A stretch of DNA of 64,000 bases from Bacteroidota bacterium. GTDB taxonomy: Bacteria > Bacteroidota > Bacteroidia > Bacteroidales > JAAYUG01. The notes beneath the pieces were generated by a model. The model was not told the origin of the DNA. It made no database searches and saw only the letters and a list, made by a program, of their open reading frames with translations. Location: contig JAKPTE010000039.1 in NCBI GenBank assembly GCA_029571215.1, positions 1 to 64,000 on the forward strand. The letters are read 5' to 3'. Each line of letters starts with the position of its first letter. Positions within the stretch are counted from its first letter, which is position 1. The translations under genes were made by a program, and so were the position numbers. Below, one piece after another: positions 1-50,962 of the stretch.

Positions 1-2999
1 AGCTGATGAAGTGTGAAATGTACGGGAGTAGGCAGGGATGTTATCGTTTGAGTTTCCGTTGCGGAGCATCCTGCGGCATCCATTATCTTCACCAGATAAC
101 TGCCGCTTTCAAGCAGGTCAAAGGTTACGCTTGTGTCAGACATCTCTTTCATTAGCCGTTGCTGCGGCAACGAAAAGAGGGCAAACCGGTAAAGTCCGTC
201 AGTTGACACTCCAAATCGGGCGGAAACAGTAATTTTCCCGGTGGCAGTTCCCGGACATAGAACCGGGGTCGTTTCCATCTGGCTGATCCTGAGACTGTCA
301 GGGCGAACGGGTACCGTGAAACTTTCCGAAACCATGCATCCGGCATCATCCGTGAGCGTCAATGCGTATGCGCCAGCCCGCAAACCGGTTACCATGCTTG
401 TATCAACGGTGGATAAAAGTTCTTCCTTATAGTCTGAAGAGTTTTCGGTACGCAACCGGTAAGGAGGAAAAGGCCTTTCTCCCGGATCGAAAACGACATT
501 TATCCTGCCGTCGGGAACAGCATAGCATGATGCTGGCCCGATGGTAACCACAGTCAATCTGAGGGGCTTGCCGGAGAGTTTCACTTCGGTGATTTTTTCT
601 GCCACGCAACCGTTGGAGTCGGTGACGGTCAGGTAATAGTTCCCGGGCGACAGCCCCGTGAAGATTTTCAAAGGCAACCGCTCCGTAATTCCCTTTACCG
701 GCATGCAGATGTCGTACTTTTGCCCGGCAAAAGGGGTTCCTCCTTGCGGAAAAAGAGTGATCATTCCATTTCCTGCTCCGGCACAGCTTACATTAATAAC
801 CGAATCGTACAGGACAAGGGCAGGAGGAGCCGGCGGGACGACAACGGAAATACTTTTCCGGCATCCATTTGCATCGGTGGCTTTTATCTGGCAGCTAATT
901 CCCGGTTCAACAGAACGCAAATTTCCGCTTACTGGAATGCTGTCGTTGAGGGTACAGGTCAGGTATCCTGTGCCTCCGGTTGCCTGAATATGAAGGATGG
1001 CCTGATCGTCATGGCACAGGGCAGGTTGCACGGCACAATCCAGCAGAATATCCGGCGGTTCCGTTATGGCAAAACTTCCCGAAACGGCCTGCCACGGATT
1101 AGCCGGATCTACCGTAGTATCCTGTACCGATACTTCATATCCATTGCCGGCAGTAAGGTTACCGGAGGTAATGGTGATTGTCCCCCTGGTGGTTATTTTT
1201 TGTGAAAAAACTGCGTTTCCATATTGTTTTACAGTGGCATGAAGCGGGAGAACTCCACCCGAAACATTTACGGTAACCGCTCCGTAGCCATGGTCTCCTT
1301 CGGTTGCCGAATGGCAGAGTACAGGATCCGTTTCTGCAATCGAAATGCTGATGTCCGGTGGTTTTTTCATGGTAATACGGCTCTGTACCGCGCAATTGTG
1401 TGCATCCCTGATGGTATACCTATGCTCACCCTCAGCAAGGCTCAGGGTGGCCTGGTGTCCGGTTACAGACAGGTAGCTGGTCGTTCCCGTTGGGCAAATG
1501 GTATAAGGTTCCGTACCTCCTGTCATTTGTAAAATGGCATTTCCTTTTTCAGCCCCGGTGCGTATCTGGTATGCAGTGTTGTTGTCGAACCATTGATTTT
1601 CAGGTGAAAAGGAAGCATTAAGTGGCTCTGGCTCCGGCATACTCACCAGGAGCAACTGATGGCAACTGGTGTCGTCCACAAAACGGGCATTGACAGAGTA
1701 TTTCCCGGCACCCAGGTTAAATCTCGGATCTTGTATAACCGTGCTGTCAATGACAAGCAAATTTCCCGGAACATTGGCCGCAAAGGTGATGGCATCGTAA
1801 AAATAGTATGTGGCCGTATCGCCGGGGAAGGTGACGGGCTGGTAAAATGTATTGATTTCGCTGATCGGGTGCAGATCATATTTGACAATCGTAACAAGGA
1901 TTTTTACCTCCTGGTTGTTGAATGGGGAGCGTTCAGGAAAAGAAAGGGTTATTTTCCCATTTTTCATCCCATAACAGGAGGGGGGAGTTACAGTTGCCTG
2001 AACGTTCATTGCCGGCAGAAACATGATTCGTTCTATGTTTCCGGCTATTTTGTTCCCGTTGAACAGTTTGAATGCCCTGATTTCTATTTCTTTTCCGAGC
2101 CAGGAGGGATTGTTCAGATCGCTGAAATAAAGTTCTGTTGATGCATTGAGGATTTTCGAAAGTTGGGTCCAACTGGTAGTACCCCTTTGCCTGGCTTCCA
2201 GAAATGCACTAACATCGGCTGTTCCGAAAAGTCTGTAACCACCACTGAGCCTGATGCTTTTGTTCTGGCATACCAACCTGATACCATCCGGGATCGAAAG
2301 GGTCACCGTATCGTAAAACTGAAAGGGGCCTGCAACATTTCCATAGGTTTCGCAGGTAACGTTATTTCCAACCGTTTTCAGAACACGAAAGGAAATGTTG
2401 TTGTAAAGATCGGCAGCCGTGAAAAGGTTTTTCGGTGAAAATACAATCTGACCCCCTGAACCAAAAAGGGTAAACGGTAAATCCTTCCACTCGCCATTGC
2501 CGCTCTGATACTGAAGGCGCGGCTGAAGGTAGCCATAGCTGCCTGGTGCCTTGTTGAAGGGGTTGTAACAATAGGCACTGTAAGTGATTGTATTATTCGC
2601 CCCTGCATAGGACGATATGTTAGTGTTTTCAATGTAAACCGGATTGTCAAGTACAATGTTGCTATGGATTGTAAAGGTTGTTCCGTTGCAACTGAGGTTG
2701 GTATAACCACCAAAGGAACAGGTGCCGCCGGAATAATTGGTTTCGGAGGAAGAAGCGCAGGTGGAAGCTCTGTAGGTAGTTCTGAATTTTTGGAGACGTC
2801 CGTTCAGGCTTTTCAGACCCAGCGTACTGCCGAGAAGGACTTCCGACGGGCTGCCATCGGTTACGGCAGTAAATATGGCCGTGCCGCCGGCAGGGCTGGA
2901 AGTGCAGGATGCTTCATAGTACCATGTATTGATCAGTTGCCCTTTTACCGGCCATACGGCGAAAAATCCCAAAACAAACAAAAGTCCGTTTCTTTTCAT
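1..2999 (-). CDS. SprB-like repeat surface protein (C-terminus beyond window)
   Basis: The frame stays open from an ATG at 2997-2999 to the window edge, giving about 999 residues with no stop, so the gene is truncated by the window and not broken. The first ~20 residues are a signal peptide (MKRNGLLFVLGFFAVWPVKG). Residues ~20-330 are a Cys-rich, Ser/Thr-rich region I do not recognise. From ~335 on there are recurring ~80-95 residue modules beginning with a Cys followed by GxxxGxI/V (CAGAGNGMI, CYAVPDGRI, CPGTATGKI) and ending in a 'GxYxLxVTDxxGC' strand. This is the pattern of SprB repeats in Bacteroidetes gliding adhesins and T9SS cargo. A T9SS sorting domain would be expected past the window edge. 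It is last in a same-strand run of four exported proteins (59 nt after the FN3 gene). Role inferred: large cell-surface or secreted adhesin. Confidence 0.85.
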   Translation of the reverse strand, partial: MKRNGLLFVLGFFAVWPVKGQLINTWYYEASCTSSPAGGTAIFTAVTDGSPSEVLLGSTLGLKSLNGRLQKFRTTYRASTCASSSETNYSGGTCSFGGYTNLSCNGTTFTIHSNIVLDNPVYIENTNISSYAGANNTITYSAYCYNPFNKAPGSYGYLQPRLQYQSGNGEWKDLPFTLFGSGGQIVFSPKNLFTAADLYNNISFRVLKTVGNNVTCETYGNVAGPFQFYDTVTLSIPDGIRLVCQNKSIRLSGGYRLFGTADVSAFLEARQRGTTSWTQLSKILNASTELYFSDLNNPSWLGKEIEIRAFKLFNGNKIAGNIERIMFLPAMNVQATVTPPSCYGMKNGKITLSFPERSPFNNQEVKILVTIVKYDLHPISEINTFYQPVTFPGDTATYYFYDAITFAANVPGNLLVIDSTVIQDPRFNLGAGKYSVNARFVDDTSCHQLLLVSMPEPEPLNASFSPENQWFDNNTAYQIRTGAEKGNAILQMTGGTEPYTICPTGTTSYLSVTGHQATLSLAEGEHRYTIRDAHNCAVQSRITMKKPPDISISIAETDPVLCHSATEGDHGYGAVTVNVSGGVLPLHATVKQYGNAVFSQKITTRGTITITSGNLTAGNGYEVSVQDTTVDPANPWQAVSGSFAITEPPDILLDCAVQPALCHDDQAILHIQATGGTGYLTCTLNDSIPVSGNLRSVEPGISCQIKATDANGCRKSISVVVPPAPPALVLYDSVINVSCAGAGNGMITLFPQGGTPFAGQKYDICMPVKGITERLPLKIFTGLSPGNYYLTVTDSNGCVAEKITEVKLSGKPLRLTVVTIGPASCYAVPDGRINVVFDPGERPFPPYRLRTENSSDYKEELLSTVDTSMVTGLRAGAYALTLTDDAGCMVSESFTVPVRPDSLRISQMETTPVLCPGTATGKITVSARFGVSTDGLYRFALFSLPQQRLMKEMSDTSVTFDLLESGSYLVKIMDAAGCSATETQTITSLPTPVHFTLHQ

Positions 3000-3058
3000 T
3001 TTCCAGGTTTTTATTCAATTGCAGATTGGCGGGATGTGAATACGGGCAATGCGGTATG

Positions 3059-5125
3059 CTAAAGGTTGATATCCAACGGGTCGCTGGGTGTAAGATGTTT
3101 TCCGTCCTTACTGACGGGTTGAATAACATACCGGTACTTTTTACCGGTTGAAACCTGGTTGTCGGTAAAACCTGATATATTCCCTGCTACGGAGGTATAT
3201 GTGCAGAGAGTGTCTTCCCCTTCGGCGCGGTATATAACCACTTTCTTTGCCTCAGAAGGAACATTGTTCCACCTGAGCTCCACAGAGCGCTTTCCGGTTC
3301 CCTTTTTCCCCTGGATGACAGGCTTTAGGGTGGGGGTTCTTCCGTGAGGCCTTACCATCGCTATTTGCTCTGATATGGTAGAAATGTTTCCCGCGCTGTC
3401 GGCTAGCTGTATGCAATATGTACAGTTCCTGCCTGGTATGGCTGCAGTATCAACCCATACCAATGTGTCTGCGAGTACTGGCAAAATGGTTATCAGGCGA
3501 AGACAGCTATCCTCATCACACGTCCGGTAAATTCGGGCCTCTTTGACATCATCTGTAGTTCGACAGGAGAATGACAGTACGATTCCTTTTTCTTCTCCTG
3601 ATGCAGCAAAAAGTATGGGCGGAGGAGGAGGTATTCTGTCGGGCTTTTCAACTTCAGCAATATCAGACAGTGCCGAATAGTTCTGCCTCTTATCAACGGC
3701 CACCAGCCGGTAGTAAACTTTTCTGGAAAGGTTGTTCAAACGGATGGAATCGTAAAAGACCGTATCGGCGATTGGAGCAATGGTAATCTGGGAAAATTCT
3801 TCTTTCCGGCTGTTCCCGCGATAAATCCTGTATCCGTAAATATCTGGTTCAGGATTTTTTTTCCATGTAAGGGTAACAATCCCGGAGGTATCAGCAATTC
3901 CATCGATGCCGCCGGGAGGGGAGGGAGGAACTGTATCGGTAAGTTGTACGAGAACCGGAAGGGAAAAGTGGGTTTCTCCGGTTGTGGTTCTGATCGAAAG
4001 TTTGTAGTAATTGGTTTCTGCAGGCTGATTATCGGTAAAACTGGTATCCGATGACGATATTTCACCGATGCAGGTGTAATTATTCCCTTCCAGAGCCGAT
4101 CGCCAGATTTTTATGCTTGTGAGACGGGGATGATTCCGGTCTTCCGGGTTCAGGTACATCCAGGACAGAACTACCCGTCCATCGTTTGTGGTGGCAGATG
4201 AGATAAACGGAATGGCAAAATCCCGTTCGCAGGGAACTGCCCTGGCAGGTTCTGACGGCGGACTGACTTCCCCGAAAGCATTGATTCCCCGAATGCGGTA
4301 GTATAGATAACCCGAGTCAAGTATCAGTGTATCAGGAAGAAGAATTGTTCCGGTTTCTCTGTCGGTTGCCGAAAAGGAAACAACGGGTTCTTCTGTCAGA
4401 CTGTGGTAGGGACCGGTGCTGTCGACCGACCGTTCTGCCAGCCAGGAAGTGAAGATATGCTGCAGAAGGTTGGTATTCCAGTGGAGCGTGATGCGCCCAC
4501 CCTCGCACAGAGTTTCGGGGGCAGGTGGTTTGGGTAGTGGAAATATTTCATCCGGTCCGATGAAAACAAACCCTGTATCAGATGACCTGTCTTCAGGGTC
4601 AGAAGCAAAGAATATCCGGTAGAGGTATTTCTCTCCTTTATTTACATTCCGGTCGGCAAAGTACAATGCGAGTGCCCTGGCTGCGGCCGGTGACATGTCG
4701 GCAGCCAACATGGCCAGGGAATAGCGTTGTTTCTGTTCTTCAGCTTTTTTACGGATATCCCTGATGGTAGCCGTCGGGGATATAATTGTTCCGTACAATG
4801 CCTGGGCTGCAATCGCCTCGTATTTTTCCTCTCCGGCTCTTTTTTCCCACTCAGAAAGAGGATAGGGCAGGATGGGTGCGGGAGTGAGCAGGGTGGTATC
4901 AGGCTCAGACAGAAGCCTGTCGTTGCGCATCAGTGTGTAGCGTACAATTTTGTAACCGTAACGGTTTCCTTCAATCCATCCTTCATAGGAACCGGGAGCC
5001 CAGCGAAGGCAAACCGAGTCACCATAGGCACGCGCCAGAACATGAATTTTTCTCTCAGGCGTTTGTGCCCAGAGCAGGTTAACCAACCCCGACAGGATAA
5101 TAAGCAGCATTCCTTTCATGAGCAT
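3059..5125 (-). CDS. Secreted multi-fibronectin type III protein
   Basis: 688 residues. A signal peptide ends near ...LLWAQ. About five FN3-like beta-sandwich modules follow after an N-terminal region: starts near residues 199 (PAPETLCEGGRITLHW), 310, 400 (PPSPPGGIDG ... VTLTWKKNPEPDIYGYRIYR), 500 and 600. Typical FN3 signatures are visible, such as 'D-x-x-x-Y-x-Y-R-I-Y-R' and 'G-x-x-Y-x-Y-x-I'. No enzymatic domain and no T9SS tail are seen. The start could be the ATG at 5125 or the in-frame one at 5119. The gene begins 14 nt after the stop of the 1476-aa gene and is followed by the SprB-like gene, so the run is probably co-transcribed. Inferred to be a structural or adhesive extracytoplasmic partner of its neighbours; substrate unknown. 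Confidence 0.85.
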   Translation of the reverse strand: MLMKGMLLIILSGLVNLLWAQTPERKIHVLARAYGDSVCLRWAPGSYEGWIEGNRYGYKIVRYTLMRNDRLLSEPDTTLLTPAPILPYPLSEWEKRAGEEKYEAIAAQALYGTIISPTATIRDIRKKAEEQKQRYSLAMLAADMSPAAARALALYFADRNVNKGEKYLYRIFFASDPEDRSSDTGFVFIGPDEIFPLPKPPAPETLCEGGRITLHWNTNLLQHIFTSWLAERSVDSTGPYHSLTEEPVVSFSATDRETGTILLPDTLILDSGYLYYRIRGINAFGEVSPPSEPARAVPCERDFAIPFISSATTNDGRVVLSWMYLNPEDRNHPRLTSIKIWRSALEGNNYTCIGEISSSDTSFTDNQPAETNYYKLSIRTTTGETHFSLPVLVQLTDTVPPSPPGGIDGIADTSGIVTLTWKKNPEPDIYGYRIYRGNSRKEEFSQITIAPIADTVFYDSIRLNNLSRKVYYRLVAVDKRQNYSALSDIAEVEKPDRIPPPPPILFAASGEEKGIVLSFSCRTTDDVKEARIYRTCDEDSCLRLITILPVLADTLVWVDTAAIPGRNCTYCIQLADSAGNISTISEQIAMVRPHGRTPTLKPVIQGKKGTGKRSVELRWNNVPSEAKKVVIYRAEGEDTLCTYTSVAGNISGFTDNQVSTGKKYRYVIQPVSKDGKHLTPSDPLDINL

Positions 5126-5139
5126 CGGTTAGTTTATCA

Positions 5140-8100
5140 TTAAGGTTGCGGCAGGTCAAACGGGTTATGCAGAACAAGAGTTGATGTAAGGGTGGGTTGG
5201 GTTTTGCCTGGCAGAAAATAACCAATACGAACCGGATAGTTGCCGGCACCAATAACCGGCCAGTAAAAGCGACTCAAGATTTTCTCCACTTTTTCGTCAT
5301 GCGGACAGCCTGACAGGCAGGCATTGGCCAGTTGGTTCCGTACATCCGAATAATCGCGGCTCCAATAATAGGGAAGCAGGTACATGATATGGGCAAACTG
5401 CGCCCATGGCTGAATCTGTCCCGAAAGTTCCTCCTCGTTGGTCAGTAAACGATTGTAGTTTTCCTGCCATACCTGAATTTCTCCGGTTGGAGGAATACCC
5501 AGTGGCTCTTTGCCCCGCCATCTGATACTACCAATACCTGCTACCGGATAATTTTCATAAATCGTTGGCTTCATGTTCTTCAGGAACCACGGGGTTTCTT
5601 CCGGAATAGCTCTTATGCGCAACAGAGGCCCGAACTGTTCTCCTCCGTATATCTCGAATCGGTCAAATGTTTCATCGCGGTAAAAGGTGGCCCCCGGAAA
5701 GAAAACATAGGGTGCAAATTCCTGGATAAACCGCACTTCAATGATGCTCTGGTTTATTTTTTCACTCAGGTTTTTGTATTTGCTGGTGCGGAATGGCATG
5801 CGCAGAAGGACGGTTTCTTCCTTCCGTGCAACGTTGCCAGAAGCTGTTCTGTTCCGCATTTCAATGGTTACCGAATCGCCATCGTAGCTTGTTTTTCTGG
5901 TTTCTTCGGTAATTCCGGCGTCGGGGGAAATGTTCAGGGGAATATTCACCAGTTCCAGATGGTACACTGTATTGCGCTGAAGATAATCTGGTATAGCAAA
6001 GAACAATGTATTTTGCGATGGTTGATAGAAGGGAGACACTTCAATGGCTTCAGCTCCCGAAACAGGAGTGAACCGCACTACCTGCTTCCATTCGTTTCCG
6101 GGTCTGAAGAAAGCACTGACTCCCTGACGAAAGGCGACATACCCTGTATCGGCTTCACCGGAATATAAATTCATCATGCGTGACACCGGGTAGCTGTAAC
6201 TGATCAATGAGGGAGGTATTTCTTTCGGCAGCGGGCCGGTGGTGAAGGTCTCCTGCCGGGTTTCGGTGATAACTTTCCCGTTTTCAGTAAACGGTTCCCA
6301 TTGTCCGTTCTTCCATTCCTCGAAACTGATCGACACTTCGAAGGTATAGGAAGAAGACGGAGTGAGAATTTCAGACGATTTGAACACCAGTATGTCCCTG
6401 GCCTGGTTCCATTCGATTTGTCCGTCAACTGGTTCCGTACCAAGCCGGAGCTCGCATTTTTCAAGTTTTATGCGGTATTTCTCATATATCCCTGGCTCAG
6501 TACTTAGTTTAATTTCGGTACCTACCGGAAGATTGAAGACAACCCGCGGTGTAATAGCTATGTCTGCATCTTTTGTTCCTGTTTCAGGGGTGATACTACC
6601 AATCAGTTCCATATTGGCAGGGCTATGTTCGGGTACAACTACCTCGCATTGTTCACCGGCGGTAATCTCAAACCGGCACTGACCCCGGACCATTCCTCCA
6701 AGGATGCTGTATTTTCCGCCAACAGTTCCGCTGAGGTACATAGGATTGGGGCCTCTGGCTTCCATGAGGGCGGCACCTGCCAGGTTGAGAATATCAAATT
6801 TTTTCGGCTTTTTCAGAACGGTAACCACTATACCCAGCCTTCCCAGCAGATAGGCGTATAGTTGCCCCTGTGCATACCAACCATTGATACCCGGAGGGCC
6901 TGTGTGGCCGGCACAATGGGCTTCCCTGCCAAAATTTGTCAGCATCAGGTCAAAACCTGCCCCTACGTCAAAATATCCGTAAACAACCCGGGTTTCTCCT
7001 CCGGCCCTGAAATCAAATCCTGAACCAAACATCACGCCTTTTGCATTGTCCAGCATAGCCTGATTCCGGTTTTTCTGAAATTCAATCACCGGCAGGTTCA
7101 GAATCCCGGCAACTCTTCTGTTCATGGGCAATGCATCAGGAAGATGCCTGCCAGCCATCAGATAGCCGTACGCTCGTCCGAAACCCGCGAAGTTCAGCCC
7201 CACGGGATTTTGAACAGTACCAATGTACACATACCAGTCATCCTCGGCCACATGCAGGGTTATCCTTCCGGCCAGATTCTCCGGTCCGTCGCCTCGAAGG
7301 GTTCCGGCAACGTTGATATAGATGCGTCCGTCGGCATGAAAGGCATGTTGGGTGAAATCCATTTCCATCGACAGGCTGCCGGATACCATAGAAGCTTTGT
7401 TGCGCCCGGGGATCCGGCCACTGGCAACTGCTTTGATTTTGTCCGTAAGCCCTGCCAATACAGTCTGTTCTGGAAGAGTAAGGCATTCCACCGCCCCGTC
7501 AAAGCCTATCCGGTTAATTCCTCCATGGGAATTAAAGGCAATTTCAAAGCGGGTATCGGCCGAGACAAGATTCTTACCGGCTACGGTAAACCCGGCCTGC
7601 ATGATCAAACCCAGACCTGTTTCTTTATCGGGAATATAGACCAGTTCTGAAGGAAGAGTAATTCCTGGCATCATCCCGGGCACGGACTCTTTTTGCTTCA
7701 TGCGGAAGTAAATTCCTCCGCCAAGCTGGTTGATGGTGATGGGACCGGCCGGAATTCCTACAGGGGAGGAAAAGAGAACATCCGCACAATAATACCTGAA
7801 TAAACCGTTGTTTCCGAAAACAGCCATTCCATCCACCAGAAATTTTTCGGCTATCCGAAGATGTACATTCCCGCTGAATCCATTGCCGTACAAAGGATCC
7901 TCATTGATGAGCCGTATGTTCCCCCGGAGTTCAAAGGCCGAGGGTTTTGATATGTTGACGGACAATTCACCTATATCTGCTCTTTCATAGAAAAAATGAT
8001 GGTTTTCCCAGCGGCTTACAAGCAGAATGTTTGTCTGCGCGGCAAATCCTTCTTTCTCCTGTTCCATCAGGTTCACAGCAGCATCGATTTCAAGGGCATA

Positions 8101-9570
8101 GGCGGGGCGCATTGCTTTGACCCCGATATGGCTGATGGTAATTGGAAAACTTGCCAGCATGCCTTGTCTGGAACCGTCAAGCGAAAGGTATTCGATGGAA
8201 AAAAACGGTTCCCTGGTTGTTATGCACATGTTCTGAAACCGGATGTCGGTTAACTGCATTTCCTGTTTTCCTTTCTCCCCCAAAGGAACCTGGAGTGACA
8301 TCCTTCCGTTCAATAATGCCGATGGCAAAAAGGTATTGTTGTTGTCTTCCACAGTGATTCGGGAGGCAGGATCAAGAACCAACCGGGTTTTTCCCCAGAG
8401 ATGAACAGGAATGCTGTCTTCGGTGCGAATAGAAAATGCATAGTGGCCATTGGCATCAATGATCGCCGAATAGGCAAATCCGTCCGGGACATCAAGGCAG
8501 GGGATACTGATACGCCCTTCCATTCGGCCTGCTGTTATATGGTTTTCAACAAAAGCCACGCTGAGTTTTTCCACGGAAAAATTCCATCCGTTCATGTTGC
8601 CTTCGCTAAAAGGCAGAAGATTGGACGCCTGTATGGCTCCGGTAAATCCGTGGTCGTCCAGTAAAAAACCCGAGATACCGAAGCTTACCGGTAAATCATC
8701 CGACCTGCGGCGGAATCTTTTGCCCAAGACCACCTCAGCGTCACTGATGTATATTCCCTGCCATAAACCGGTATTACCTTCCGGAAAATCCCCCTTTCGA
8801 TCCGGCGGAAGAAAGAGCCCGGAAGGATTGACCCGGTCGCTCATGTCGAATACGAGATGATGGCATATAAAGGTGAAGTCGGGCAGATTTCTGAGCTGAA
8901 ACGGGCTTAGGGAAATGTCAGCCAGCAGATCATTCAGGGAATAGGCCGTAATGCGAAAATCGGTCTCAACAGGACCTTCCCGTGCATTACCTTCTTCGTC
9001 GGCCGGGATGAACAAGCCGGATTGCAGCGAAAGCCGGCCCAGAACGGTTACCGATTCGAAACCGGAACAACCGGCTGAAACATAACTTCCTGCAAGGATT
9101 CTGATATCGGAAACCGGCAGAAAATCGAGGGAAACTTCTTCTACCAGCATCAGTTCAAAGGGGCCGGCAATGCCGTCATCCAGAGAGAAAGGTACCTGGT
9201 AGGCTGCAAAATATAACTGTTTTCCATCGGCCGGATTCCTGAGGCGAAGGCACGCATCAAACCTGGCCATCCCGGGTATAAAGGTAACTCCCGTAATGAG
9301 GAGTGCATAGTCAGGGTTATCCCCTGGACCTTTTATACCCGCCGGGAGATTAAAAAAAACCGTGGTGTCAATTTGTTCTGCATACCGGTTTTCCTGTTCT
9401 ACCAAGGCATAGATCGAATCGATTCTTCCGGGCGTGAGCAGAACAGAATCCTGGCTGGCCGTTAACGGGCAGGATAAAAGAAACAGGAATGCCATGAAGT
9501 GCGCCGGATAAAAGAATAACTTTTCAGCGCGGGGAGTTCGTATTTCAGTAAAGATCCTGGAGGATGGCAT
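5140..9570 (-). CDS. Giant exported protein of unknown function (1476 aa)
   Basis: I do not recognise the family. The N-terminus has a basic stretch (residues ~5-17) and then a hydrophobic stretch ending ...LSCPLTASQ, consistent with a long signal peptide. This start overlaps the upstream gene by 26 nt; the internal Met26 (9495) would avoid the overlap but leaves a weak n-region. The body is beta-rich, with many alternating hydrophobic strands and repeated 'I...G.I...L' segments. Residues ~840-900 contain Gly-rich strands (GVMFGSGFDFRAGGETRVVY). Residues ~1000-1095 resemble a bacterial Ig-like (Big_5) module: 'ITPRVVFNLPVGTEI ... LTPSSSYTFEVSISF'. No catalytic motif or sorting tail is visible. 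It sits between an alpha-helical-repeat protein and the FN3 protein. Inferred: large cell-envelope or surface structural protein working with its operon neighbours. Confidence 0.8.
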   Translation of the reverse strand: MPSSRIFTEIRTPRAEKLFFYPAHFMAFLFLLSCPLTASQDSVLLTPGRIDSIYALVEQENRYAEQIDTTVFFNLPAGIKGPGDNPDYALLITGVTFIPGMARFDACLRLRNPADGKQLYFAAYQVPFSLDDGIAGPFELMLVEEVSLDFLPVSDIRILAGSYVSAGCSGFESVTVLGRLSLQSGLFIPADEEGNAREGPVETDFRITAYSLNDLLADISLSPFQLRNLPDFTFICHHLVFDMSDRVNPSGLFLPPDRKGDFPEGNTGLWQGIYISDAEVVLGKRFRRRSDDLPVSFGISGFLLDDHGFTGAIQASNLLPFSEGNMNGWNFSVEKLSVAFVENHITAGRMEGRISIPCLDVPDGFAYSAIIDANGHYAFSIRTEDSIPVHLWGKTRLVLDPASRITVEDNNNTFLPSALLNGRMSLQVPLGEKGKQEMQLTDIRFQNMCITTREPFFSIEYLSLDGSRQGMLASFPITISHIGVKAMRPAYALEIDAAVNLMEQEKEGFAAQTNILLVSRWENHHFFYERADIGELSVNISKPSAFELRGNIRLINEDPLYGNGFSGNVHLRIAEKFLVDGMAVFGNNGLFRYYCADVLFSSPVGIPAGPITINQLGGGIYFRMKQKESVPGMMPGITLPSELVYIPDKETGLGLIMQAGFTVAGKNLVSADTRFEIAFNSHGGINRIGFDGAVECLTLPEQTVLAGLTDKIKAVASGRIPGRNKASMVSGSLSMEMDFTQHAFHADGRIYINVAGTLRGDGPENLAGRITLHVAEDDWYVYIGTVQNPVGLNFAGFGRAYGYLMAGRHLPDALPMNRRVAGILNLPVIEFQKNRNQAMLDNAKGVMFGSGFDFRAGGETRVVYGYFDVGAGFDLMLTNFGREAHCAGHTGPPGINGWYAQGQLYAYLLGRLGIVVTVLKKPKKFDILNLAGAALMEARGPNPMYLSGTVGGKYSILGGMVRGQCRFEITAGEQCEVVVPEHSPANMELIGSITPETGTKDADIAITPRVVFNLPVGTEIKLSTEPGIYEKYRIKLEKCELRLGTEPVDGQIEWNQARDILVFKSSEILTPSSSYTFEVSISFEEWKNGQWEPFTENGKVITETRQETFTTGPLPKEIPPSLISYSYPVSRMMNLYSGEADTGYVAFRQGVSAFFRPGNEWKQVVRFTPVSGAEAIEVSPFYQPSQNTLFFAIPDYLQRNTVYHLELVNIPLNISPDAGITEETRKTSYDGDSVTIEMRNRTASGNVARKEETVLLRMPFRTSKYKNLSEKINQSIIEVRFIQEFAPYVFFPGATFYRDETFDRFEIYGGEQFGPLLRIRAIPEETPWFLKNMKPTIYENYPVAGIGSIRWRGKEPLGIPPTGEIQVWQENYNRLLTNEEELSGQIQPWAQFAHIMYLLPYYWSRDYSDVRNQLANACLSGCPHDEKVEKILSRFYWPVIGAGNYPVRIGYFLPGKTQPTLTSTLVLHNPFDLPQP

Positions 9571-10477
9571 CGGCGTTGTATTTTTCTTTCAACCACTTCC
9601 TTACCAATGCAATAGTCTCTTCTGATGACAGAGAACTGAATGCGGCAGTATCCTGCACGGGAAAACCAGCAAGGTACGGAGCAATCATTTCAAGGATCTT
9701 GGCTGTACAGGACACTGCCTGTTCGTTGTCAGGATTGGAATAGGAACATCCTGACGGGCGGTCCAGGGCAACTTCCAACAGGTAATCAACTGCTTCCTTT
9801 CGGCGTATGTAAATCAGATCGGGAAAGACGTCCTCAATGGTTTCATCATTGACCGGAAGCTGTTGGATTCTTTTCATGCAGTACCGTATTGCTTCCCCGT
9901 CACCCATGCGGGCGAGGGCCAGATAATAAGCCCATTTTCTCTCTGCTTCCTTTTCCCTTATATCCCTGATTCTGCTTTTAAAATCAGGAATCAGGCCAAC
10001 ACAACCGGCAAAACCTGTAATTTTAATCAGCTCCTCCGACGGATTTGCGGTGGTTCTGAAAATATCTTCCAGCACTTTTTTTGCCTGAGCATCAAACAAT
10101 GAACGGTCGAAGTTCTTCAGTTGGGCCAGGTTTTTTCTGGCAACTATCGGATCGGAATTCCGGCTGCCCTGAAGGAGCAACATCAAAACCTGTTTTCTGA
10201 TGTCGGGTACAACGGTTCTTCTGCCTACGGCTGCTGTAAGGTACCATGCGGCTTCCCTTGCCCTGTCATTTTTGTCAGACTGGTACTTCTGAAGAAGTGA
10301 AAGCACCTCATTATCGTCTCCCTTAAGAATTTGCCCGGCCAGGCCTGACGAAACGGAACCTTGCAGCCAGGCAGTAATAAATTCCTGGATTAGAAAGTCC
10401 GTACTCTGTCCCCTGATTTGAAGGCAGAAGCTCAGACAGGCAAAAAGAATCAGGAAGATTCCCTTTTTCTGTTGCAT
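9545..10477 (-). CDS. Exported alpha-helical-repeat (HEAT-like) protein
   Basis: 310 residues. Residues 1-23 are a signal peptide (MQQKKGIFLILFACLSFCLQ). The rest is almost wholly helical, with repeated ~35-residue helix pairs bearing 'AREAAWYLTAAVG', 'EAIRYCMKRIQQL' and 'EAVDYLLEVALDR', which looks like HEAT/ARM solenoid repeats; the assignment is by pattern only. Such solenoids usually bind other proteins. It is first in the minus-strand run of four secreted proteins and overlaps the start of the 1476-aa gene by 26 nt, suggesting translational coupling. A candidate promoter lies 27 nt upstream. Confidence 0.8.
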   Translation of the reverse strand: MQQKKGIFLILFACLSFCLQIRGQSTDFLIQEFITAWLQGSVSSGLAGQILKGDDNEVLSLLQKYQSDKNDRAREAAWYLTAAVGRRTVVPDIRKQVLMLLLQGSRNSDPIVARKNLAQLKNFDRSLFDAQAKKVLEDIFRTTANPSEELIKITGFAGCVGLIPDFKSRIRDIREKEAERKWAYYLALARMGDGEAIRYCMKRIQQLPVNDETIEDVFPDLIYIRRKEAVDYLLEVALDRPSGCSYSNPDNEQAVSCTAKILEMIAPYLAGFPVQDTAAFSSLSSEETIALVRKWLKEKYNADAILQDLY

Positions 10478-10550: not shown

Positions 10551-10590
10551 GAAAAAAGGATCGCAGCTACCGGCGCTGCGATCCTGCCTT
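10551..10590 (-). terminator. Strong hairpin with T-tracts on both sides
   Basis: A perfect 11-bp stem (AGGATCGCAGC at 10557-10567 with GCTGCGATCCT at 10575-10585) has a 7-nt loop. On the minus strand it is followed by TTTTTT, a good intrinsic terminator. The plus side also has CTTTTTC. No gene in the 1.3 kb to the right points into it, so what it terminates is unclear. A second small stem (GCTTCG 10598-10603 / CGAAGC 10616-10621) follows. Confidence 0.6.
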
Positions 10591-10998: not shown

Positions 10999-11130
10999 AA
11001 CCCGGATTATTCATTAGGAGAGAAGCGAACTAATGCATAGAGCGAAAGCTATGCGCGGTGGCATCCGGGTTAACCCCGATGAATCGGCGATTCCAATGGC
11101 CCGGAGGGTGATGCATGTATTTTTAAAGAT
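10999..11130 (+). repeat. Dispersed palindromic element, copy A
   Basis: The outer arms AACCCGGAT (10999-11007) and ATCCGGGTT (11063-11071) are perfect inverted repeats enclosing inner stems CATTAG/CTAATG and CATAG/CTATG, so the RNA or single strand could fold as a three-way junction. A conserved ~55-nt tail follows (AACCCcGATGAATC... GGTgATGcATGTATTTT). The same design occurs at 59461, 63774 and, reversed, at 34503. Confidence 0.75.
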
Positions 11131-11760
11131 AGATTTTCTGGGCAAAGAGCTATGCGGGGTTTCACCCCGAACCCTGAGTTACTTTTTTGTCAGCCACACA
11201 AAAAAGTAACCAAAAAAAGTCACCACGATTGAAGGCTGAGGCCTCTCCGTCAGGTACTCACACAATCGTCCATAACCAACCCGGCCTCAGCCCACACCAA
11301 TCGTGGACATCCTCCCACAGGCTTGCAATGTGCAGGAGTATGAGCAAGAGCTTATTTCCGTTCTATAAGGAGCTGACCCGTTGAGCTTATACATCATGGT
11401 TAATTTAAATGAATCGGCGATTCCATCGGCCATGAGGGTGATGCATGTATTTTTAAAGATAGATTTTCCGGGCAGAGAGTTATGCGGGGTTTCACCCCGA
11501 ACCCTGAGTTACTTTTTTGTCAGCCACACAAAAAAGTAACCAAAAAAAGTCTCCACGATGGAAGGCTGAGGCCTCTCTGTCAAGTACCCAAACATCCGTC
11601 CATAACCAACCCGGCCTCAGCCCACACCAATCGTAGACATCCTCCCACAGGCTTGCAAAGTGCAGGAGTATGAGCAATAGCTTTTTTCCGTTTTATAAGG
11701 AGAGGAAACGTTTAGCGATTGCATCAGGGTTAACCCCTATGAATCGAAAATTTAATCGGA
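11061..11760 (+). repeat. 330-bp tandem repeat, about 2.1 copies
   Basis: Copy 1 (best-conserved part 11079-11372) and copy 2 (11409-11702) are nearly identical at an exact offset of 330 nt. A third partial unit starts at 11721 (GCATCAGGGTTAACCCC). Each unit starts with the tail of the palindromic element and then carries stacked hairpins: CGGGGT/ACCCCG (11155-11169), a perfect 13-bp GTTACTTTTTTGT/ACAAAAAAGTAAC stem (11178-11210; again 11508-11540), and a long arm pairing CCACGATTG..GGCTGAGGCC (11223-11243) with GGCCTCAGCC..CAATCGTGG (11283-11306). No reading frame is conserved between copies. Function unknown: structured RNA, MITE-like DNA or recombination relic. Confidence 0.85.
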
Positions 11761-12805: not shown

Positions 12806-15544
12806 ATGAATTACAGACGGGGATATATACATTCCCTTTTCGTTTTTTTTACGGTAACCGTTTTCAGCTTGCCACTCTGTGGTCAGAATCCGGACATGGT
12901 AAAAATATCCGCTGTTTACAGCCATACGGCAGTTTTGGATGCCTTTCGTGATCTTACCGCCCGGTATGGAGTGCAGTTTTTTTACCGCGACAGCATATTT
13001 GCCGGTGATACCATTTCGTATGCGGGTCAGGAGTCTGACCTGAGTGTATTTTTGCAGGAGGTTCTAAGGGGAAAACCCCTCGAATACCGGATAGTTGGTT
13101 CGAATAAAGTAGTGTTCCTTCCTTCGGAAAGAGTTGCTTTGCTTACCGGAGCCATGATCAACATGGCCGGAAACGACATGACAAAGGGAATGATAGAAGT
13201 AGGTAACCCTGCCGATGCCGGGAAGTACAGGAGGGCCGAAATCAGGGGAAGAATACTGAATGGGAAAAACGGAGAACCCCTTCCGGGGGCATCCCTGCAG
13301 GTGGAAAATCTTTCCGTTGGGACCACCAGTAATATGGATGGATCCTTTTCTCTGGTATTACAACCAGGAATCTATAACCTGCAGGTAGCCTGTCTGGGTT
13401 TTGAGCAGCAGAAGTTTTCGCTTAAGGTAATTGGACCGGGAGCGGTTGACCTTGAACTGTTCGAGGAATCTGTCAGGCTGGAAGAAGTGAAGGTTTTCGC
13501 CAAAATGGCCGACCGCAACGTCCGCAGCAATACCATGGGATTGATTGACATGGATATGCGCGACTTTAAATTACTACCTCCTGTGGGTGGGGATAAAGAT
13601 ATTATGAAAAGGCTTTCCATGATGCCGGGAATTTCTTCCGCCGGCGAATTTGGGTCAGGTATCAGCGTGAGGGGGGGAGGCGATGACCAGAATCTCTATC
13701 TTCTCGAAGGAGCTTCAGTGTACAATACTTCCCATGTCTTCGGGCTTATGTCGGTGATCAATCCGGATGCCGTTGCCGGCATGAAACTTTACAGGGGTTA
13801 CATTCCGGCGGAGTTTGGAGAACGGGTATCATCCGTCATCGATATCCGGGTGCGTGATAACGCCCGCAAGGGGTTTCACGGACAGGGAGGTATCGGACTG
13901 TTCAACAGCAGGGTAATGTTCAATGGTACACTTCCAGGAGATCATTTCTCCTGGATGCTGGGGGGAAGAAGCAGTTATTCCGACTGGATACTGGGCCGCC
14001 TGCCCGATTACAACCTCCGTAGCAGCCATGCTTTATTTCATGACCTGAACGGATTGTTTCAGTATAAAAACAGCAAAAATCATCTCACTTTCTTTGCCTA
14101 TACGGGTTTCGACAGGTTCCGTTATGCCGGAGAATTTACCTACCGCTACGGCAATAACCTGGCATCGGCCCGGTGGACGCGAATCTTTAATGCCAACTGG
14201 AATACGGAACTTACTGCTTCCGTTTCCGATTATTATGTTGCCAGGGATGATCTGGCAGAAGCCTCACTGGTAAAACAGGTTTCTTCCGGAATCCGTTCTC
14301 TTGATGCCAAACTGGTGCTTAACTGGAGTAAGTTTCACAATCACAGGCCACTAGCCGGTGTTCAGGCCATCCATTACACGGTTTATCCCGGATCACAGAA
14401 ACCATTGAATTCATTCTCCCTGATCAATCCTCTAGACCTTGAAAACAGCAAAGGATATGAAACTGCCTTCTTTGCCGGCGATGACTTCGACCTTTCCGAC
14501 TGGTTCGGAATCAGTGCGGGCCTGCGTTTTTCAGTGTACCAACTTACGGGTCCTTACCAGAAATTTCTGTACAGTGCAGAAGGTCCGTTGTCACCATCCC
14601 GTATCACTGACACCCTTATGTACACAGAAGGCCTTCATATCGTTACCTTTCACAGTTTTGAGCCTCGGCTGGCAGTGAAATTTATGCTGAACCAGAGAAG
14701 TTCCGTTAAGTTTTCCTTTAGCAAAAACACCCAGTACCTCATGCTTCTTTCCTATACATCCATTCCTACACCGAATGATGTCTGGAAACTTGCCGATCCC
14801 TATATTCGTCCGGTTAGTTCCCGGCAGCTGGCAATGGGATATTTCCGGAATTCGGCCGATAATTTTTTTGAGTTTTCGGCTGAAATATATTACAGATGGC
14901 TTGAAAATTTGCCGGAGTACAAAAATGATGCTTTGCTTGAAATGAATCCCCATCCTGAAACTGAGCTGATAAAAACCTCCGGCAGAAATTATGGTATTGA
15001 ATGTATGATCAGAAAAAACGGGGGAAGAATAGATGGCTGGATCAATTATACGTATTCCCGGGCATGGAGGAGAACAAACGGACGTTACTCTGAGGAAATC
15101 ATCAATAAAAACAAATGGTATCCGTCGATGTTTGACAGGCCCCATGACCTGAATGTGTCGGGAACCTATTACTATAACCGCCGGCTTCGGTTTACAGCCA
15201 ATTTTTATTTGTCCTCGGGTCGTCCAACAACCCTGCCGGAATACCAGTTTGATTTCGGAAATAATATGCTTGTATGGTATTCTGACAGAAATGCATACCG
15301 CTTACCGCCTTACCATCGTCTCGATCTTTCGGTCAGCCGGGATGAAAGCCTGCACCTGCGGAAAAAATGGAAAGGAAGCTGGACCTTTTCGGTTCTTAAT
15401 ATTTACGGAAGGAAAAATGCCTATTCGGTATTTTACAAGAAGGCTCCGGGTGGTTTGCAGGACAATTATGATGTTTCAGGACTTTATAAAATGTATCTTA
15501 TCGGCCGGCCTTTTCCTGTGGTAACATATAATTTTATCTTCTGA
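12806..15544 (+). CDS. TonB-dependent outer membrane receptor
   Basis: 912 residues. The signal peptide ends near ...LPLCGQ. Residues ~32-110 form an STN-like domain (AVYSHTAVLDAFRDLTARYG ... QEVLRGKPLEYRI). Residues ~145-220 are a carboxypeptidase-regulatory-like beta-sandwich (GRILNGKNGEPLPGASLQVE ... TTSNMDGSFSL). Next comes the TonB plug (LSMMPGISSAGEFGSGISVR, GGGDDQNLYLLEGASVYN, PAEFGERVSSVIDIRV), and then a ~550-residue beta-barrel. STN-bearing receptors in this phylum are often tied to FecR/anti-sigma control, but no sigma/anti-sigma pair lies next to it. It is followed 2 nt later by a DUF4249 lipoprotein, a known genomic partner of this receptor type. No SusD homologue is present, so it is not a classical SusCD pair. 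Substrate unknown. Confidence 0.95.
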   Translation: MNYRRGYIHSLFVFFTVTVFSLPLCGQNPDMVKISAVYSHTAVLDAFRDLTARYGVQFFYRDSIFAGDTISYAGQESDLSVFLQEVLRGKPLEYRIVGSNKVVFLPSERVALLTGAMINMAGNDMTKGMIEVGNPADAGKYRRAEIRGRILNGKNGEPLPGASLQVENLSVGTTSNMDGSFSLVLQPGIYNLQVACLGFEQQKFSLKVIGPGAVDLELFEESVRLEEVKVFAKMADRNVRSNTMGLIDMDMRDFKLLPPVGGDKDIMKRLSMMPGISSAGEFGSGISVRGGGDDQNLYLLEGASVYNTSHVFGLMSVINPDAVAGMKLYRGYIPAEFGERVSSVIDIRVRDNARKGFHGQGGIGLFNSRVMFNGTLPGDHFSWMLGGRSSYSDWILGRLPDYNLRSSHALFHDLNGLFQYKNSKNHLTFFAYTGFDRFRYAGEFTYRYGNNLASARWTRIFNANWNTELTASVSDYYVARDDLAEASLVKQVSSGIRSLDAKLVLNWSKFHNHRPLAGVQAIHYTVYPGSQKPLNSFSLINPLDLENSKGYETAFFAGDDFDLSDWFGISAGLRFSVYQLTGPYQKFLYSAEGPLSPSRITDTLMYTEGLHIVTFHSFEPRLAVKFMLNQRSSVKFSFSKNTQYLMLLSYTSIPTPNDVWKLADPYIRPVSSRQLAMGYFRNSADNFFEFSAEIYYRWLENLPEYKNDALLEMNPHPETELIKTSGRNYGIECMIRKNGGRIDGWINYTYSRAWRRTNGRYSEEIINKNKWYPSMFDRPHDLNVSGTYYYNRRLRFTANFYLSSGRPTTLPEYQFDFGNNMLVWYSDRNAYRLPPYHRLDLSVSRDESLHLRKKWKGSWTFSVLNIYGRKNAYSVFYKKAPGGLQDNYDVSGLYKMYLIGRPFPVVTYNFIF

Positions 15545-15546
15545 CC

Positions 15547-16632
15547 ATGCGTTGCAGAACTTCTCTCATACCATACATTCTTCTGCTGCTGGCTGGAACG
15601 GCCTGTCAGGAGCCTTATGATCCAGGGCCTCTCAATAGCAACGAAATGATTCCTGTAATTGAGGGTTCCGTTTCGAATGGCCCGGGACCCTTTCCAATTT
15701 ACCTTTCCTGGGCTTCTCCTTTTGGTAAAAGACTGAACAGACCAATCAGCGGTGCATGGATCATGCTTTCCGATAATTTCGGCCTCAGCGAAATTCTGGC
15801 CGAAAATGCCCCGGGCGTTTATGTAACTTCATCCAATGGAATTCCTATTATTGAGGGAAGAAGCTATCAACTGACAGTTAAATTGCCCAACGGAGATATC
15901 TTCGAATCAGAACCGCAGGAGCTTCAGTATCATCCTCAGGTAGATTCTGTTTATGCCGAAATAGGTACCTCTGTCACCGTTACAGAAAATCTGTATGGTG
16001 ACCTGATCGAGACCAAGAGCTCCGGTCTGCATGTTTTGGCCGATGTCACCGATCCTTCTGATAGCAAACGGTTTTACCGTTTTTCAACCCGTCTGCTGAT
16101 TGAAAAATACCACACTCTGAATCCTAATACACCGGATGCCATTACTGTTTTTTGCTACGATATTTATAACACCGATCAGATACCAGAGGTATTTGCCTCG
16201 GTCCCCAGAGAGGGAAACCAGTTGCTCAGAAGTACCCGGTATTCCTTCCTGCCATATATTATCTATCCTGAACCCGAAGATCCAATGGTCAGCAAAGATC
16301 TGATGACAGCCTGGATTTTGCAGACAAAGGTGTCTGTTTTTAACCAGAAAGTATATGATTTTTACCGTCTGGCTGCAAAACAACTGCATGCCGACCAGCA
16401 GATCTTCGATCCTATACCTTCTCAGATAAAGGGAAATATGATTTGCAGGAATAATCCGGATAAATTGATGATCGGGATGTTCGAGGTGGCTTCCGTAACC
16501 ACGCTGTACCATATTTTTACCTGGTTCCCCGGTTCACAGATTTATCACAAACGTGAACTGAACAATTACCAGTTTCCCGATGGACCTGACTGTAAAGAAG
16601 GTTTTCCTCCTCCGGGATGGATATATTTTTGA
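15547..16632 (+). CDS. DUF4249 family lipoprotein
   Basis: 361 residues. The lipobox LAGTAC (Cys20) predicts lipidation. The arrangement is typical of DUF4249: 'IPVIEGSVSNGPGPFPIYLS' near the start, 'ISGAWIMLSDNFG', 'EGRSYQLTVKLPNGDIFESE' and a long mixed C-terminal half, ending in a Gly/Pro-rich tail with Cys residues (NPDKLMIGMFEVAS ... PDGPDCKEGFPPPGW). DUF4249 proteins are generally encoded beside TonB receptors and are presumed to be surface or periplasmic accessories of that transporter. It starts 2 nt after the receptor stop and is almost certainly co-transcribed with it. Confidence 0.9.
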   Translation: MRCRTSLIPYILLLLAGTACQEPYDPGPLNSNEMIPVIEGSVSNGPGPFPIYLSWASPFGKRLNRPISGAWIMLSDNFGLSEILAENAPGVYVTSSNGIPIIEGRSYQLTVKLPNGDIFESEPQELQYHPQVDSVYAEIGTSVTVTENLYGDLIETKSSGLHVLADVTDPSDSKRFYRFSTRLLIEKYHTLNPNTPDAITVFCYDIYNTDQIPEVFASVPREGNQLLRSTRYSFLPYIIYPEPEDPMVSKDLMTAWILQTKVSVFNQKVYDFYRLAAKQLHADQQIFDPIPSQIKGNMICRNNPDKLMIGMFEVASVTTLYHIFTWFPGSQIYHKRELNNYQFPDGPDCKEGFPPPGWIYF

Positions 16633-50888: not shown

Positions 50889-50962
50889 TGAACCCGGAGG
50901 GACTCGAACCCCCAACCTTCTGATCCGTAGTCAGATGCTCTATCCAATTAAGCTACGCGTCC
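50889..50962 (-). tRNA. tRNA-Arg (anticodon ACG)
   Basis: The cloverleaf reads on the minus strand: D-arm GCTT/GAGC, anticodon stem TCTGA/TCAGA with loop CTACGGA (anticodon ACG), T-arm GGGGG/CCCTC with loop TTCGAGT, discriminator A, no encoded CCA. The acceptor arms GGACGCG and CGGGTTC pair except for G:G at 5:68. Tandem to no other tRNA. Anticodon A34 would need TadA editing to inosine. Confidence 0.93.

What the first reader, a model, noticed from the sequence alone, without database searches (positions are those of the whole stretch)
1..10477. Four-gene set of large exported proteins that may form one surface structure
A helical-solenoid protein, a 1476-aa protein of no recognised family, a multi-FN3 protein and an SprB-like repeat protein lie in line with gaps of 14-59 nt or a 26-nt overlap, under one candidate promoter. 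Each is exported, and none shows an enzymatic motif. This looks like a complex or filament system and not a random collection.
Basis: inference. Interest (0 to 1): 0.6.

Follow-up and report, generated by a model that had tools for sequence, protein, structure and literature searches.

The report
Conserved partners of TANFOR bacterial toxins
Four neighbouring genes for exported proteins belong to a gene set that recurs across the phylum Bacteroidota next to, and sometimes fused with, a known but poorly understood class of bacterial toxins, so they probably form surface machinery that handles those toxins.

Summary
The four genes exist as described (A 310 aa, B 1476, C 688, D >=999 and cut by the contig end). 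They are a real, conserved unit. B, which has no Pfam, NCBIfam or PDB relative, was followed directly by C in 62 of 75 observable named loci and 22 of 31 loci of a phylum sample; D usually follows. A precedes B only in some lineages. The key link is outside the window: B is fused to an N-terminal TANFOR module in 18 of 32 phylum-sample loci, and a separate TANFOR gene lies in 36 of 80 named loci. TANFOR proteins are polymorphic toxins (Jana et al. 2020). Some TANFOR genes beside B carry nuclease domains and likely immunity genes, and one relative has an orphan toxin cassette downstream of B. The window's genome has the T9SS marker SprA and a truncated TANFOR gene at the end of another contig. 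Complete D relatives end in a type A T9SS tail (26 of 28), not type B. Best reading: a T9SS-linked surface apparatus that carries or presents TANFOR toxins. The association is well supported; delivery, and B's role as scaffold or barrel, are inferred. The promoter claim is not above chance.

The parts
9545..10477 (-). A: 310-aa exported protein, helical by inference; relatives in the loci examined lie mostly just before B, U or a TANFOR gene
5140..9570 (-). B: 1476-aa core protein; residues ~45-1467 colinear with ~1500-aa relatives across Bacteroidota; residues 25-985 predicted nearly all beta, then Ig-like domains and a C-terminal alpha/beta domain
3059..5125 (-). C: 688-aa FN3-type protein, usually the next gene after B
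3..2999 (-). D: SprB-repeat protein, first 999 aa only, cut by the contig end; complete relatives carry a T9SS type A tail
10557..10585 (-). terminator-like hairpin (11-bp stem, T run) about 80 nt upstream of A; may end the upstream transcript or act as a leader

Best explanation
The four genes are the structural part of a T9SS-linked cell-surface apparatus that works with TANFOR-domain polymorphic toxins. Likely working: all four proteins cross the inner membrane by Sec (inferred from N-termini). D is exported by T9SS through its type A tail and forms a long surface-attached repeat protein (tail shown in relatives; display inferred). B is the core subunit: it holds the TANFOR module either fused to its own N-terminus or as a separate chain from a neighbouring gene (fusion shown; binding inferred). 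C, an FN3 protein, bridges B and D (inferred from gene order). A is an accessory factor encoded just before B or before a TANFOR gene (order shown; role inferred). In other genomes the locus also has U, a ~580-aa protein that looks like an outer-membrane beta-barrel (by eye), and one or more TANFOR genes with variable C-terminal toxins and small downstream genes that look like immunity genes. In the window's genome the only TANFOR gene found is on another contig and cut short, so the window holds the apparatus and not the warhead.
For: B found in 44 of 392 phylum genomes (own included) and in 508 confirmed stretches of genome contigs (80 kept). B->C next gene, same strand: 62 of 75, 22 of 31 and 3 of 6 observable loci in three samples. 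T-B fusions: 18 of 32 phylum-sample loci plus L044; separate TANFOR genes in 36 of 80 named loci. The module is TANFOR: TIGR02542 hits 2 of 20 B relatives and, below cut-off, 2 of 4 separate T proteins scanned. Of 16 phylum-sample genomes with a TANFOR match >=200 bits, 14 also have B, p 6e-13; in the 12 unfused ones T lies on B's contig, 5.6-17.5 kb away (coordinates). T genes beside B carry toxin-type domains: Endonuclea_NS_2 in L106, AHH in L111. G021 has B, then a TANFOR gene, then an orphan TANFOR fragment (91% identical over 100 aa) with a new tail and five paralogous small genes. A lies directly before a TANFOR gene in G044 and G020. D relatives have T9SS type A tails, 26 of 28. Own genome: SprA 2775 bits and a TANFOR N-terminus at the end of contig C1, E 5e-18. 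SprA in 44 of 44 B genomes (lists compared by eye) against 320 of 392 overall (p 7e-5).
Against: No TANFOR gene lies within the window's operon, and the one in the genome is a 107-aa fragment on another contig next to unrelated genes. U was not found in the own genome (76% complete, weak query). 24 of 80 named loci show none of T, U or A in the stretch held. B's own C-terminus is conserved and not variable, so B is not itself a toxin carrier. TANFOR profile hits are partly FN3 cross-matches: 234 of 392 genomes match at E<=0.001, so only strong hits were counted. Two of 16 strong-TANFOR genomes (G217, G348) lack a detected B. Five more TANFOR proteins scanned (one an orphan fragment) gave no clear toxin family. 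SprA co-occurrence is confounded by phylogeny. Delivery, complex formation and surface location were not tested.
Confidence: 0.66

Rival explanations
1. An adhesin or surface-filament system with no toxin role; TANFOR is only a general export or assembly module that toxins borrow.
For: SprB and FN3 repeats are typical of adhesins; T-B fusion proteins end in or near B's conserved C-terminus with no toxin found; T alone, without toxin, occurs in L105 (475 aa) and L145 (477 aa); in G020 the slot between B and D holds a variable lipoprotein and not a toxin.
Against: Repeated co-location with TANFOR proteins, some of which carry nuclease domains, strong genome-level co-occurrence, and an orphan toxin-type cassette with small paralogues next to B in G021.
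Confidence: 0.22
2. B is an outer-membrane beta-barrel (LptD- or usher-like) that exports the toxin or the surface proteins.
For: Residues 25-985 are predicted as a long antiparallel beta meander, about 26 long strands in the second part by my count; Foldseek's best PDB match is LptD, E 3e-7; VIA-align gives porins and ushers, Z up to 13.5; many strands are amphipathic.
Against: TM-scores under 0.2 for the best rows, rmsd 14 A at Z 13.5, pTM 0.55; amphipathic strands also fit soluble beta sheets; apolipoprotein B appears in the same list; U looks like the more usual barrel.
Confidence: 0.1
3. Chance neighbours or a lineage-specific cluster of unrelated surface genes.
For: A and D vary between lineages; A absent from the 32 phylum-sample loci.
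Against: B-C adjacency in most loci over many families; purifying selection on all four.
Confidence: 0.02

Closest known systems
TANFOR-domain polymorphic toxins of Bacteroidetes (Jana, Salomon & Bosis 2020, PMC7073777; read: first two of six parts of the text, section 9, and found passages)
   Same: Their neighbourhoods are enriched in SprB, FN3 and T9SS tail domains, which match C and D here; T9SS in >95% of their TANFOR genomes; variable C-terminal toxins with immunity genes.
   Different: The window's A, B, C and D carry no TANFOR domain and no toxin. In the parts read, the paper's domain-based survey does not describe B, A or U, T-B and T-U fusions, or a fixed operon.
SprB and other T9SS-exported repeat adhesins of gliding Bacteroidota (recalled, except for the PF13573, TIGR04183 and TIGR04131 tests)
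   Same: D has SprB repeats and, in relatives, a T9SS tail.
   Different: Tail is type A in 26 of 28; D belongs to a recurrent set with B and C.
Rhs and CDI polymorphic toxin loci with displaced cassettes (recalled)
   Same: Orphan cassettes with conserved flanks: toxin-type fragment in G021, variable slot between B and D in G020.
   Different: No Rhs, YD-repeat or two-partner secretion family came up in the family scans made here; sequence families differ.

Membership tests
TANFOR polymorphic toxin (TIGR02542 + variable toxin + immunity) | TANFOR domain in one of the window's four proteins | tested here: not met
   NCBIfam scan of all four: no TIGR02542; B starts after the TANFOR module of fused relatives
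TANFOR polymorphic toxin (TIGR02542 + variable toxin + immunity) | variable C-terminal toxin domain | tested here: not met
   B's C-terminus conserved to ~residue 1467 in relatives; no toxin family
TANFOR polymorphic toxin (TIGR02542 + variable toxin + immunity) | TANFOR gene in the same genome | tested here: met
   N-terminal 107 aa at end of contig C1, profile E 5e-18; rest missing
TANFOR gene neighbourhood (SprB, FN3, T9SS-tail genes beside TANFOR) | SprB and FN3 genes in line with the set | tested here: met
   D: PF13573 E 5e-13; C: 18 of 28 members of its alignment match fn3
TANFOR gene neighbourhood (SprB, FN3, T9SS-tail genes beside TANFOR) | TANFOR gene adjacent in the window | tested here: inconclusive
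   None in the window part examined (ORFs 1-26000 and family scans); contig ends inside D, and in relative G044 the TANFOR gene follows D-U-A
T9SS substrate (protein D) | C-terminal T9SS sorting domain | tested here: inconclusive
   Window D is cut; 26 of 28 complete relatives have TIGR04183
T9SS substrate (protein D) | T9SS in the genome | tested here: met
   SprA TIGR04189, 2775 bits, contig C29
LptD/usher-type outer-membrane barrel (protein B) | barrel fold | tested here: inconclusive

The most novel reading that the evidence does not exclude
B, with A, C, D and (elsewhere) U, is an undescribed toxin-export or presentation machine of Bacteroidota: B is a giant barrel-like core to which the TANFOR module docks or is fused, D is a T9SS-delivered stalk, and swappable TANFOR cassettes provide the warhead, making T9SS one half of a two-part contact weapon.
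Probability: 0.2. Interest if true: 0.85.

Novelty: new variant of a known kind. Interest (0 to 1): 0.58.

Why it matters
How TANFOR toxins leave the cell is an open question; Jana et al. only hypothesised T9SS. The fusion of B to the TANFOR module and the recurrent gene order name a testable set of partner proteins (A, B, C, D, U) in named genera such as Flavobacterium, Tenacibaculum, Chitinophaga and Ohtaekwangia. B itself is a widespread large family with no domain model found here, so domain-based surveys would pass over it.

Tried and rejected
Single promoter for the set: not above chance. T9SS type B tail on D: relatives have type A. B as the TANFOR toxin itself: no variable C-terminus. 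Phage-tail reading of C (PHROG tail fiber J, E 6e-11): explained by FN3 cross-matching, as C sits next to B in most loci. RNA leader upstream of A: no Rfam family there, only a tRNA at 50889-50962. PDB sequence relatives: none for B (only chance-level rows; none) or U; the TANFOR profile matches FN3 and Ig-type proteins. Fold search of B's C-terminal part: Ig/CopC-like first domain, Z 12.0, rmsd 2.3, 94 aligned; the last ~200 residues are barely tested. First HMM labelling mixed T and B; separated.

Novelty searches in the held library (PMC open licences, no bioRxiv collection): 'TANFOR domain', T9SS + polymorphic toxin terms, 'TANFOR', T9SS + antibacterial toxin terms, T9SS + interbacterial competition + Flavobacterium, SprB repeat + polymorphic toxin, SprB + FN3 + T9SS. 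Of the papers listed, only PMC7073777 was opened; of the others I saw listings only (one other biology paper, PMC11796102, holds the word TANFOR once). The supplementary files of PMC7073777 were not readable here and may list B-type neighbours by accession.

Full report
What is in the window. The window starts at base 1 of contig C27 of a 2.13-Mb, 76%-complete assembly, so D is cut. Pfam gives SprB for D and nothing above cut-off for A, B or C; NCBIfam and PHROGs add only FN3-type cross-matches for C and weak rows for the others. C is an FN3 protein by its family: 18 of 28 members of its alignment match fn3. In a same-genus genome the four genes are in the same order, with amino-acid identity 0.76, 0.80, 0.74, 0.75 and dN/dS 0.13-0.23.

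Is the set conserved? B was found in 8 of 60 genomes of the relatives search (own included), in 44 of 392 genomes of a phylum sample (own included) and in 508 stretches of named genome contigs, of which the 80 closest were kept. I called ORFs in these 80 loci, in 32 phylum-sample loci (not all sample matches were fetched) and in 7 relatives' loci. The next same-strand gene after B is C in 62 of 75 observable cases (4 of 79 B ORFs had no room), in 22 of 31 and in 3 of 6; in three more loci C is within three genes. In several exceptions B is followed at once by a D-like protein. Proteins of 827 aa or more follow C in 53 loci, window included; most complete ones end alike, but L057, L073 and L112 do not. 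Of 28 complete D proteins scanned, 26 end in the T9SS type A tail TIGR04183 (L057, L073 and L112 were not among the 28). A is rarer: 24 members in all loci, window included; next gene B in 16, U in 3, TANFOR in 1, other or none in 4.

The missing partner. The long members of B's family (about 1490-2660 aa) have an extra N-terminal module. It matches TIGR02542, the TANFOR domain, in 2 of 20 members scanned, and it is the same module found as separate genes near ~1500-aa B proteins. With a profile of that module and a length condition on its non-FN3 part, 19 B proteins are fusions (18 of 32 phylum-sample loci plus L044), while separate TANFOR genes occur in 36 of 80 named, 4 of 32 sample and 2 of 7 relatives' loci. 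A further recurrent gene, U (~580 aa, barrel-like by eye, no Pfam or PDB match), has 64 members and is fused to TANFOR in L069 and L070 by the first labelling (the stricter keeps L070). A typical complete operon is L106 (Ohtaekwangia koreensis): U-TANFOR(2089 aa)-230 aa-A-B-C-D.

TANFOR proteins are polymorphic toxins (Jana et al. 2020, PMC7073777). In the loci here, TANFOR proteins end in a DNA/RNA non-specific endonuclease domain (L106) or an AHH nuclease domain (L111); L143 has a reprolysin-like domain and L104 a sub-threshold M78 peptidase match. Five more TANFOR proteins, one of them an orphan fragment, gave no clear toxin family. In relative G021, B is followed by a TANFOR gene, a later ORF that begins with a 91%-identical 100-aa piece of it and then differs, and five paralogous small genes. 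This is the usual look of an orphan cassette with immunity genes (recalled from Rhs/CDI loci).

Genome-level test. In the 392-genome sample, 16 genomes have a TANFOR match of 200 bits or more; 14 of them also have B (Fisher p 6e-13). In 12 of the 14 the two are separate genes and always on one contig, 5.6-17.5 kb apart; in the other two, G308 and G436, they lie in one open frame (coordinates). Weak TANFOR hits were not used because FN3 cross-matches inflate them to 234 of 392. The window's own genome has one TANFOR match: the N-terminal 107 aa at the last bases of contig C1. The same-genus genome gave only a 37-aa weak match at a contig end, with no TANFOR ORF there. The own genome has SprA; SprA is present in all 44 B genomes (lists compared by eye) and in 320 of 392 overall, which phylogeny may explain.

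Structure. AlphaFold2 models: B residues 25-985, pLDDT 84, pTM 0.55, nearly all beta; B residues 980-1476, pLDDT 91, pTM 0.85, Ig-like domains followed by an alpha/beta domain. The large part resembles outer-membrane barrels in strand order (LptD first in Foldseek, OprD porins and FimD in VIA-align), but the best rows have TM-scores under 0.2 and the top VIA rows have rmsd of 12-21 A. I take this as a lead only.

A variable slot. In relative G020 the place of C is held by a lipoprotein-like gene (L043). Another contig carries displaced copies: the 3' end of B (97% and 94% DNA identity), each with a divergent variant of that gene, and in one case the 5' start of D (86%). One variant matches the FISUMP family weakly. 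So in some lineages the gene between B and D may be exchanged by cassette recombination.

Verdict. The unit is real; its tie to TANFOR toxins rests on fusion, order and co-occurrence. What it does with them is inferred. The mechanism I think most likely is a surface apparatus, part exported by T9SS, that holds TANFOR proteins through B.

Noticed in passing
L043 12011-14351 and L078 8837-13278 (relative genome G020): Displaced cassettes: copies of B's 3' end (97% and 94% DNA identity), each with a divergent lipoprotein-like variant and, in one case, D's 5' start (86%), on a contig away from the main B-lipoprotein-D locus. This suggests cassette exchange in the slot between B and D.
   Followed up: partly
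L188 6085-15951 (relative genome G021): TANFOR gene right after B, then an orphan TANFOR fragment with a new tail and an array of five small paralogous genes, as in polymorphic toxin loci.
   Followed up: partly
L060 601-4913 and 12737-17049: Two D-type genes on either side of B and C share 4,313 bp at 99.9% identity but differ in length.
   Followed up: no
window 11062-11361 and 11392-11691: A 300-nt direct repeat, 91% identical, in the 1.4-kb gap upstream of A, each copy with a hairpin.
   Followed up: no
window 12806-16632: TonB-dependent receptor-type protein (CarbopepD_reg_2, Plug) followed by a DUF4249 protein.
   Followed up: no
G000 contig C1 126057-126368 (L164 9049-9369): TANFOR N-terminus cut by the contig end in the window's own genome.
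   Followed up: partly
L069 1509-4352 and L070 3010-5721: Single ORFs that match both the TANFOR module and the U family (only L070 under the stricter).
   Followed up: partly
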